Shown here: piece after piece, positions 39,354 through 41,357 of the stretch
How positions within the stretch are numbered: position 1 is the first letter of the stretch
Layout of the letters: each line of letters starts with the position of its first letter
From: Hespellia sp.
GTDB lineage: Bacteria; Bacillota; Clostridia; Lachnospirales; Lachnospiraceae
Direction: 5' to 3'
NCBI GenBank assembly: GCA_028694105.1
Contig: JAQUUC010000008.1
Span: 34,230 to 98,229 of the forward strand
DNA: 64,000 nucleotides
The notes under the pieces: model-generated
Database searches by the model: none
Seen by the model: only the letters and a program-made list of their open reading frames with translations
What the model was told of the DNA's origin: nothing
Program-made: the position numbers and the translations under genes

Positions 39354-39593
39354 ATGACAAGAGAAGAAGTAGTAGCAAAGATGATTGAGTATGCTGCAAT
39401 GGCATGGAACGTAGACGCAGCTAACATCAATGAGAACACGAACATCGCAGAAGAATTGGGCGTTGAATCTGTAAAGCGTGTAGCAGTGAGCGCATCTATC
39501 GAGAATGATTTTGATATCATGATCCCGGTTGCAAGATTTGGACAGTACAAAACGATTGGCGAATTAGCTGATTTCGTAATGGAAGAAATGTAA
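39354..39593 (+). CDS. Acyl carrier protein
   Basis: NIAEELGVESVKRVAVSASIENDFDIMIP, with Ser in phosphopantetheine position (GVES). Confidence 0.88.
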   Translation: MTREEVVAKMIEYAAMAWNVDAANINENTNIAEELGVESVKRVAVSASIENDFDIMIPVARFGQYKTIGELADFVMEEM

Positions 39594-39606
39594 GAGGAGA
39601 AAAACT

Positions 39607-40896
39607 ATGGTACATAATGTAAAATTAGGACAAAACATGAGAAGTGTATCCATTGTTGGTGTTGGAGCAACTCCTTTCTTCAATGGAATTACAAATAAGC
39701 AGTATCATGGACTTACCAATGGTGAGCTGTTTGGTTATGCAGCACTGGATGCGATGAAAGACGCACACGTAGAGCCAAGGGATGTGCAGTATTTCTTCCA
39801 TGGTTCAGCAAATCCACATGTATTAAATGGATGTATTACTCCAAACCTTCAGGTTGCTGACTGGTTCGGTATGAGAGGAAAAGGTTCTCTCTCTCACTCA
39901 GAAGGATGCTGTACAGGTTATATTGCATTAGAAGAGGCTGTGATGGCAGTAGCAAGTGGAGCTTATGATATTGTTCTTACAGGTTGTGGTGATCAGGGAA
40001 CCGGTATGCCGGATGGCAATACACCTGACCATATGCGTACAGCACTCACAACAGAAGTATTATTCCCGGATCTTGATTCCATTTTTGATCGTGCTTACGG
40101 ACGTTATCTTGGTGGTGGTCCCGGTATGAATCATGATGACTGGATTAACTTCTATGCAAGAGAGAATGGATTAACAGCAGAACAGGTAGATGACGTATTA
40201 AATCATCAGGCTTACCATTTCAGACGTGCTGCTGAACTTTGCCCCAGAGCAATTCGCAGAACACCATTTGATCAGATGGCAAAAGATGCCGGATATGACG
40301 ATGTATGGGAATTCATGAAATCCCCACATAATCCAAAGATGACACAGTATCTCAGAACTTCAAGTGATTCATGCGTGGCAGACGGTGCAGCCTGCTGTAT
40401 CGTTGTTCCAACTGAAATCGCTCATAAATATACAGACAAACCAATCGAAGTATTGGCAACCGGTGCATCCGTATTAGATGCGATCGTTCCTCATTTAGAG
40501 AAAAAAGCAACTGCAGAGGCTGCCCGTCAGGTGTTCGAAGCGACCGGTCTTACTGCGGATGATATGGACCTGTTATTTGTGAATGACTTTATCGGTTCTT
40601 CTGCATTCCTTGCAGCAGAGGAGATTGGTTATCTTCCAAAAGGAGAAGGATGGAAATCTGTACTCGAAGGAAGAATCGCATTTGATGGAGACAAACCAAT
40701 GAATACAAATGGTGGACGTACTTCTTATGGTCATGCATTTGGTGCATCAGGAATGGCAGACATATTTGAAGCTGTCACTCAGATGCGTGGAGAAGCTGGA
40801 GAACGCCAGATTAAGAAGATGCCTAAGCATACTTTCTTAAGAGGTTTTGGTGGAGCACAGAATGTTCGTGCAACCATTTTACGAGCAAACTTTTAA
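39607..40896 (+). CDS. Thiolase-like (SCP-x/PhlC-like) protein, paralog of 8390..9673
   Basis: SIVGVGATPFF, SEGCCTGYIALEEAV, NTNGGRTSYGHAFGASGMADIFEA. Confidence 0.87.
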   Translation: MVHNVKLGQNMRSVSIVGVGATPFFNGITNKQYHGLTNGELFGYAALDAMKDAHVEPRDVQYFFHGSANPHVLNGCITPNLQVADWFGMRGKGSLSHSEGCCTGYIALEEAVMAVASGAYDIVLTGCGDQGTGMPDGNTPDHMRTALTTEVLFPDLDSIFDRAYGRYLGGGPGMNHDDWINFYARENGLTAEQVDDVLNHQAYHFRRAAELCPRAIRRTPFDQMAKDAGYDDVWEFMKSPHNPKMTQYLRTSSDSCVADGAACCIVVPTEIAHKYTDKPIEVLATGASVLDAIVPHLEKKATAEAARQVFEATGLTADDMDLLFVNDFIGSSAFLAAEEIGYLPKGEGWKSVLEGRIAFDGDKPMNTNGGRTSYGHAFGASGMADIFEAVTQMRGEAGERQIKKMPKHTFLRGFGGAQNVRATILRANF

Positions 40897-40910
40897 GGGA
40901 GGAAATGAAG

Positions 40911-41357
40911 ATGGATCAGAATAGAATTAGTACAGAAGAATTTTGGAATCCGGAGCATGTTGTAGAGAAGTTCTGGAATGGTTTAAAAGATGGCGTTATT
41001 TACGCAAAGAAATGTAAAGAGTGTGGAGCAATCGAATTCCCACCTCATCATGCATGTAATGAATGTGGTTATCATGATACAGAGTGGACAACACTGAAAG
41101 GAACAGGAATGTTAAAGTCATTCGTATTTACAGGTTTGTTGAATGCAAGACTTGAACTTGAAGATATGGGACTGAAATATGTCTGCGGTGAAGTTCAGTT
41201 TGATGAAGGACCAGAGATGAATGCGGTTATTCTTGGAATTAACAAGAAAAAGGGAAGAGAAATCATGGATAAACTTCCAGTAAAGGTTCGCCCGGTATTC
41301 TTTGACATGGGAAGATATACAACACTATTCTTTGAACTTGATGAAGATGAGAAATAA
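40911..41357 (+). CDS. DUF35-type Zn-ribbon/OB-fold protein, paralog of 9684..10100
   Basis: CKECGAIEFPPHHACNECGYHDTEW; ATG 40911 favoured over 40905 on RBS spacing. Confidence 0.87.
   Translation: MDQNRISTEEFWNPEHVVEKFWNGLKDGVIYAKKCKECGAIEFPPHHACNECGYHDTEWTTLKGTGMLKSFVFTGLLNARLELEDMGLKYVCGEVQFDEGPEMNAVILGINKKKGREIMDKLPVKVRPVFFDMGRYTTLFFELDEDEK

What the first reader, a model, noticed from the sequence alone, without database searches (positions are those of the whole stretch)
39354..41357. ACP + thiolase-like + DUF35 cassette inside a glycoside-catabolism island: candidate undescribed carrier-tethered C-C chemistry
Seen: a stand-alone ACP (GVES attachment serine) is followed at once by a thiolase-like enzyme (Cys in SEGCCTGY) and a four-Cys DUF35 Zn-ribbon/OB protein. 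Known: thiolase-like/DUF35 pairs form obligate complexes, for example PhlC-PhlB (C-acylation/deacylation of phloroglucinols) and the Ltp2-ChsH2 steroid side-chain aldolase, and these act on CoA or small-molecule substrates. Inference: this cassette performs a reversible C-acyl transfer or retro-aldol/Claisen cleavage on an aglycone or sugar fragment, with the product loaded on a dedicated ACP. I know of no described catabolic pathway with this combination.
Basis: partly seen in the sequence, partly recalled or inferred. Interest (0 to 1): 0.82.

Follow-up and report, generated by a model that had tools for sequence, protein, structure and literature searches.

The report
ACP-coupled thiolase module in gut bacteria
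Gut Lachnospiraceae and a few distant relatives carry a conserved set of enzymes that looks built to break a carbon-carbon bond in a plant-derived compound, catch the released acyl piece on a dedicated carrier protein, and cash it in as ATP, a use of carrier proteins in catabolism that I found no description of.

Summary
In detail: an ACP, a thiolase-like enzyme and a DUF35 protein stand in that order at 39354-41357. The cassette is not a chance neighbourhood. In 66 related thiolase loci with enough flank, DUF35 is adjacent in 66 and an ACP lies within 1.2 kb in 62. The ACP serine is invariant in 47 sequences. The ACP sits upstream, downstream, or fused to DUF35, across Bacillota, Actinomycetota and Chloroflexota. 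The window's genome holds a second full copy (thiolase-DUF35-ACP-Pta-Buk) and a third ACP-Pta-Buk operon; its fatty-acid ACPs are elsewhere. Active-site residues fit the Cys/His/His acyl-enzyme chemistry of PhlC and argue against the Ltp2/Sal aldolase mechanism. Best reading: C-acyl (1,3-dicarbonyl or acylphenol) cleavage onto holo-ACP, then acyl phosphate and ATP. Genomes with the thiolase are enriched for C-glycoside deglycosidase and phloretin/DAPG hydrolase genes, which points to polyphenol catabolism, but the substrate is not identified. A new variant of the thiolase-like/DUF35 acyltransferases; direction and substrate are inferred.

The parts
39354..39593 (+). stand-alone acyl carrier protein, attachment serine Ser39 (LGVES)
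   Evidence: PF00550 6e-10; Ser39 invariant in 47 cassette ACPs
39607..40896 (+). thiolase-like acyltransferase, Cys101/His65/His376
   Evidence: PF22691 2e-32; residues conserved in 68 sequences; fold of SCP2-thiolase/PhlC/BbsB group
40905..41357 (+). DUF35 protein: four-Cys zinc ribbon and OB fold, partner subunit
   Evidence: zf-ChsH2 9e-8; Foldseek DUF35 structures only at E<0.001
39149..39197 (+). intrinsic terminator that ends the upstream operon
   Evidence: RNA fold -29.7 kcal/mol, z -9.07, followed by a T run
39246..39281 (.). palindromic CAAAGT repeats, operator-like
   Evidence: inverted repeats I2 and I3; function not tested
41416..42096 (-). TetR-like regulator, convergent with the cassette; possible regulator of it
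   Evidence: ORF; family judged by eye and by homologues beside the cassette in other loci
48756..49400 (+). phosphopantetheinyl transferase, candidate to load the ACP
   Evidence: PF01648 2e-11; homologues next to the cassette in other genomes
8372..9673 (+). second thiolase-like enzyme, 60% identical
   Evidence: no ACP within 1.2 kb
9618..10100 (+). second DUF35 protein (true start probably downstream of 9618)
   Evidence: zf-ChsH2 5e-8 and OB_ChsH2_C 2e-4
31853..33298 (+). FAD-dependent reductase, nearest NCBIfam model vinyl phenol reductase (below cut-off); homologues near the cassette in other phyla
33954..34349 (+). SnoaL-like protein, also next to the module in L063, L067, L069, L071
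   Evidence: PF07366 3e-18
35527..38843 (+). NuoG/GltD-like fusion and NuoF-like ferredoxin protein, electron supply
   Evidence: homologues near the module in L060, L071, L072
29081..29533 (+). C-glycoside deglycosidase beta subunit (context)
   Evidence: PF19906 7e-39

Best explanation
The cassette is the C-C cleaving half of an energy-conserving, carrier-protein-dependent catabolic module. (1) A phosphopantetheinyl transferase loads the ACP at Ser39 (inferred). (2) The thiolase-like enzyme, in complex with DUF35, attacks the carbonyl of a C-acyl compound (a 1,3-dicarbonyl or an acylated polyphenol such as a dihydrochalcone) with Cys101 and releases the stabilised carbanion, as PhlC does (inferred from conserved residues). 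(3) The acyl group moves from Cys101 to the ACP arm instead of to CoA or another phenol (inferred from the conserved ACP link and the DUF35-ACP fusions). (4) A phosphotransacylase turns acyl-ACP into acyl phosphate and a butyrate-kinase-type enzyme makes ATP and a free acid; in some relatives an acyl-ACP thioesterase may hydrolyse it (inferred from gene content). In this genome Pta and Buk would act in trans, from the ACP-Pta-Buk operon at C82:5040-7509 or the copy on contig C55. The likeliest feedstock is a phenolic aglycone, or a fragment of it, released by the C-glycoside enzymes of the island; this last point is the least certain.
For: ACP within 1.2 kb of 62 of 66 thiolases in three genomic arrangements and three phyla; DUF35-ACP and DUF35-ACP-ACP fusions; Pta within 10 kb of 25, Buk of 19, PPTase of 13 out of 40 thiolases; complete thiolase-DUF35-ACP-Pta-Buk locus and separate ACP-Pta-Buk operon in the same genome; Collinsella operon with AcpS; acyl-ACP thioesterase beside two fused loci; Cys101, His65, His376 match PhlC's catalytic Cys88, His56, His347; genome-level link with C-glycoside deglycosidase (7/10 against 18/289) and phloretin/DAPG hydrolase (5/10 against 16/289).
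Against: No biochemistry. The window's own cassette has no Pta or Buk beside it, and 13 of 40 well-flanked thiolases have no Pta, Buk or PPTase within 10 kb. Pta and kinase reactions are reversible, so direction is not proven. The second pair at 8372-10100 has no adjacent ACP. DAPG hydrolase was not found in this genome. Many orthologues lie with sugar-type enzymes (class II aldolase, FGGY kinase, Fe-alcohol dehydrogenase), which does not obviously suit a phenolic substrate.
Confidence: 0.58

Rival explanations
1. Reverse direction: kinase and phosphotransacylase activate a free acid to acyl-ACP at the cost of ATP, and the thiolase-like enzyme C-acylates a phenol or sugar-derived nucleophile, making a specialised metabolite as PhlABC and MucABC do.
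For: PhlC and MucABC are biosynthetic C-acyltransferases of the same superfamily; PhlC chemistry is reversible (PMC6392133); Pta and Buk are reversible; the outlier L102 sits with FabD-like and carboxylase-like genes.
Against: Setting among reductases, aldolase, glycoside-cleaving enzymes and transporters looks catabolic; acyl-ACP thioesterase and a C-acyl hydrolase stand beside related loci; several copies per genome.
Confidence: 0.2
2. Sugar version of the same module: the thiolase cleaves a sugar-derived 1,3-dicarbonyl (for example a keto-sugar from the 3-keto-glycoside route), and kinase, class II aldolase and dehydrogenases of the neighbouring set process the other fragment.
For: OYE, Fe-alcohol dehydrogenase, D-2-hydroxyacid dehydrogenase, class II aldolase and FGGY kinase cluster with many close orthologues and lie upstream on this contig; Gfo/Idh and TIM-barrel genes fill the island. 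LsrF thiolysis of a phosphorylated pentanedione is a precedent known to me, not checked here.
Against: The set is absent from Coriobacteria, Chloroflexota and fused-type loci, so it is not part of the core; the DAPG hydrolase link points to phenols.
Confidence: 0.25
3. Retro-aldolase like Ltp2-ChsH2 or Sal-Shy.
For: Same subunit composition (thiolase fold plus DUF35); the DUF35 model's best structural match is Sal-Shy.
Against: Catalytic Tyr-Asp-His/Cys is Asn-Asp-Phe in 66 of 68 sequences, while the nucleophilic Cys101, which is Gly in Sal, is invariant.
Confidence: 0.04
4. Ordinary CoA thiolase with an unrelated or fatty-acid ACP next door.
For: Public sources name some homologues acetyl-CoA acetyltransferase; most of the superfamily uses CoA.
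Against: Second catalytic Cys replaced (Phe328, Gly413 in 67-68 of 68); scores far below all NCBIfam thiolase cut-offs; ACP linkage and fusions; fatty-acid ACPs are at other loci.
Confidence: 0.05

Closest known systems
PhlABC (PhlC thiolase-like, PhlB DUF35), C-acyltransferase of 2,4-diacetylphloroglucinol
   Same: Thiolase-like plus DUF35; catalytic Cys, two His; GHA motif; no second catalytic Cys
   Different: Needs PhlA, uses no carrier protein or CoA; no PhlA homologue is seen beside this cassette; no Pta/Buk
MucABC, tetramate C-acyltransferase (9vbo, 9vbt)
   Same: Multicomponent thiolase-like/DUF35 acyltransferase proposed to acylate a cyclic 1,3-dicarbonyl
   Different: Biosynthetic, more distant in sequence, not linked to Pta/Buk as far as I know
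Ltp2-ChsH2 and Sal-Shy steroid aldolases
   Same: Thiolase fold plus DUF35 partner
   Different: CoA substrates; Tyr-based aldolase residues absent here
Benzoylsuccinyl-CoA thiolase BbsAB and archaeal thiolase/HMGCS/DUF35 complex
   Same: Thiolase plus DUF35; similar fold
   Different: CoA-dependent thiolysis or condensation, no ACP
Phloretin/DAPG hydrolase (PhlG family, PF18089)
   Same: Removes a C-acyl group from a phloroglucinol; co-occurs with these thiolases
   Different: A hydrolase of an unrelated family; does not conserve the acyl energy
Phosphotransacylase/butyrate kinase pair of butyrate fermentation
   Same: Acyl thioester to acyl phosphate to ATP; same protein families
   Different: Acts on CoA thioesters; here tied to a dedicated ACP

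Membership tests
Thiolase-like / DUF35 two-component enzymes | thiolase-fold subunit adjacent to a zinc-ribbon/OB-fold DUF35 subunit | tested here: met
   (DUF35 within 200 bp in 66 of 66)
Thiolase-like / DUF35 two-component enzymes | physical complex of the two subunits | not testable with these tools
   no complex prediction available
PhlC-type C-acyltransferase | nucleophilic Cys with two His (PhlC Cys88, His56, His347) | tested here: met
   Cys101 68/68, His65 66/68, His376 68/68; one alignment places His65 differently
PhlC-type C-acyltransferase | further pocket residues Asn87, Tyr298, Ser349, Asp352 | tested here: not met
   positions carry Gly/Ala, Asn, mostly Phe/His, Ser
PhlABC complex | third, HMGCS-like PhlA subunit | tested here: not met
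   none among the neighbouring genes identified; no HMM search of the genome was made
Ltp2/Sal retro-aldolases | Y-D-H/C catalytic motif | tested here: not met
   N-D-F
Degradative CoA thiolase (SCP2 type) | second catalytic Cys (HDCF motif) | tested here: not met
   Phe328 in 67/68; only the outlier L102/L015 has H-D-C
Carrier proteins (PP-binding) | four-helix PP-binding domain with attachment serine | tested here: met
   PF00550 6e-10, Ser39 47/47
Carrier proteins (PP-binding) | phosphopantetheine attached in vivo | not testable with these tools
   indirect only: PPTase or AcpS next door
Fatty-acid synthesis ACP | DSL motif, located with fab/plsX genes | tested here: not met
   fatty-acid ACPs on C8 and C75 have DSL; the cassette ACP has VES

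The most novel reading that the evidence does not exclude
An ACP-dependent, ATP-yielding retro-Claisen (or retro-Friedel-Crafts) pathway: acyl groups cut from 1,3-diketones or acylphenols are held on a dedicated ACP and converted through acyl phosphate to ATP, a carrier-protein version of substrate-level phosphorylation used by gut anaerobes on plant compounds.
Probability: 0.45. Interest if true: 0.88.

Novelty: new variant of a known kind. Interest (0 to 1): 0.76.

Why it matters
Carrier proteins are thought of mainly as tools for building molecules; here a stand-alone ACP appears to serve breakdown and energy gain. If true, it would explain how some gut anaerobes profit from polyphenols or modified sugars, give a catalyst that removes (or adds) C-acyl groups and hands the product to a carrier, and correct the annotation of many proteins now called acetyl-CoA acetyltransferase. 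The prediction can be tested directly with a few purified proteins.

Tried and rejected
Retro-aldolase (residues absent). Ordinary thiolase (second Cys absent). Fatty-acid ACP by chance (fatty-acid ACPs found elsewhere). One long operon 31853-41357: first assumed from short gaps, dropped after the terminator at 39149-39197 was found; the automatic terminator scan had missed it. The known phloroglucinol pathway (PMC10470551) uses a cyclohydrolase, a beta-keto acid cleavage enzyme and a CoA thiolase, not this set. Literature searches for the ACP/thiolase/DUF35 or acyl-ACP/acyl-phosphate combination found nothing relevant; the Catenibacillus and C-glycoside papers do not mention thiolase, ACP or DUF35. 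DAPG hydrolase was not found in the window's own genome (the same model did find it in 21 related genomes).

Full report
WHAT IS THERE. The three genes stand as described: ACP 39354-39593, thiolase-like 39607-40896, DUF35 40905-41357, gaps of 13 and 8 bp. The ACP matches PP-binding (6e-10) but falls below every NCBIfam ACP cut-off. The thiolase model (pLDDT 84) falls in the SCP2-thiolase/PhlC/BbsB group, and the DUF35 model (pLDDT 82) matches only DUF35 structures at E<0.001. A very stable terminator (39149-39197, -29.7 kcal/mol, z -9) ends the upstream operon, so the cassette is probably its own transcription unit. It is preceded by palindromic CAAAGT repeats and followed by a convergent TetR-like gene.

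IT IS NOT ALONE. The genome holds two more thiolase/DUF35 pairs: window 8372-10100 and one on contig C55. The C55 locus reads thiolase-DUF35-ACP-phosphotransacylase-butyrate kinase. A third ACP-phosphotransacylase-butyrate kinase operon lies upstream on the window's own contig, C82:5040-7509. Five PP-binding ACPs were found: two are fatty-acid ACPs with DSL motifs, one with the fab genes and one between plsX and rnc; the other three belong to these modules. Both butyrate kinases over the curated cut-off are in ACP-Pta-Buk operons.

CONSERVATION. A scan of GTDB genomes gave 64 loci, and genome searches gave more. Among 66 thiolases with at least 1.5 kb on both sides, DUF35 is adjacent in 66 and an ACP is within 1.2 kb in 62; a random point in the window's genome has an ACP that close with probability about 0.004. 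Related species are not independent, so the tree matters more than that number: ACP upstream is one clade of 46, fused is one clade of 4, downstream elsewhere, over Bacillota, Actinomycetota and Chloroflexota. The link therefore survived rearrangement. Of 40 thiolases with at least 7.5 kb on both sides, Pta lies within 10 kb in 25, Buk in 19, a PPTase in 13; 13 have none of these. Distribution is patchy: 10 of 299 genomes of the family and, in a phylum-wide sample of 399, only two weak matches besides the window's own genome.

FUSIONS AND OTHER LINKS. In L092 and L099 one chain holds DUF35 and an ACP domain; in L096 and L100 two ACP-like domains follow DUF35 (the second domain in each was read by eye). 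A protein search found 240 matches to this fusion, many carrying PP-binding. Beside two of these lies an acyl-ACP thioesterase (PF01643). L099 also has a DAPG/phloretin hydrolase family protein (PF18089, 4e-75) and a URO-D protein. Collinsella L072 reads thiolase-DUF35-ACP-Pta-Buk-AcpS. The distant outlier L102 lacks Pta and Buk and has SCP2-type residues, yet has a small ACP-like ORF, a FabD-like ORF and a holo-ACP synthase; the ACP-like ORF was judged by eye and no profile scored it, so I count L102 as without ACP.

ACTIVE SITE. In 68 thiolases Cys101 and His376 are invariant, and His65 and Asn326 are present in 66. PhlC uses Cys88, His56 and His347 (PMC6392133), which align to Cys101, His65 and His376 (one of the two PhlC alignments places His65 differently). 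The second thiolase cysteine is absent (Phe328, Gly413). The Tyr-Asp-His/Cys of Ltp2 and Sal (PMC12329534) is Asn-Asp-Phe. An acyl-enzyme is therefore likely and the known aldolase mechanism is not. This is residue matching, not assay.

WHAT IT ACTS ON. The evidence points two ways. Polyphenols: thiolase-bearing genomes carry a C-glycoside deglycosidase in 7 of 10 against 18 of 289 (Fisher 1.2e-6), and a DAPG/phloretin hydrolase in 5 of 10 against 16 of 289 (2.1e-4). DgpB-like genes share a co-directional run with the cassette in L043, L049, L057 and L058. The FAD reductase at 31853 is nearest to vinyl phenol reductase, below its cut-off. These genomes may simply be versatile plant degraders, since the two marker families also co-occur with each other (p 6e-4). 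Sugars: OYE, Fe-alcohol dehydrogenase, D-2-hydroxyacid dehydrogenase, class II aldolase and FGGY kinase cluster with many orthologues and lie upstream on this contig. I favour a phenolic ketone or 1,3-diketone, without much confidence.

MECHANISM. Shown: gene content, conservation, fusions, residues. Inferred: phosphopantetheinylation, acyl-Cys101, transfer to ACP, acyl phosphate, ATP. The thioesterase and hydrolase neighbours and the catabolic setting favour the breakdown direction; the reverse remains possible.

NOVELTY. The enzymes belong to a known kind, the thiolase-like/DUF35 acyltransferases. The dedicated ACP, its fusions with DUF35, and the Pta/Buk/PPTase partners are new to me, and none of the literature searches found them described. 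Most subscription papers are not in that library, so a published description could have been missed.

Noticed in passing
L092:9970-10743, L096:9636-10730, L099:809-1618, L100:1029-2114: DUF35 fused to one or two ACP domains in a single chain, a domain architecture I know of nowhere else.
   Followed up: partly
L102:1555-11467: A distant thiolase/DUF35 pair with SCP2-type residues beside an ACP-like ORF, FabD-like, carboxyltransferase-like and holo-ACP synthase genes: perhaps a different, malonyl-type ACP system.
   Followed up: no
L006:10291-18958 (contig C82, just upstream of the window): FGGY kinase, PRD-type regulator, Fe-alcohol dehydrogenase, D-2-hydroxyacid dehydrogenase, OYE/BaiCD-like reductase and class II aldolase: a conserved set of unknown substrate that clusters with the cassette in many other genomes.
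   Followed up: partly
window 35527-38843: NuoG/GltD-type fusion next to a NuoF-like protein whose FMN-binding domain scores below the Pfam cut-off; an unusual electron-transfer pair.
   Followed up: no
window 8-1747 and 43593-45983; L006:1457-3958; L110:10570-12975: Four long AraC-type proteins with what looks like a glycoside-hydrolase-39-like C-terminal part, all on one contig (judged by eye).
   Followed up: no
window 57487-60150 and 60788-63556: Two adjacent P-type ATPase genes with a small response-regulator-like gene between them (judged by eye).
   Followed up: no
window 31715-31756: Perfect 14-bp inverted repeat (ATTTGTCCTAACAG) just before the FAD reductase operon; operator or terminator not decided.
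   Followed up: no
L101:1986-11070: Two thiolase/DUF35 pairs in tandem near a butyrate kinase and two phosphotransacylase genes; one of the thiolases has Lys at the His65 position.
   Followed up: no
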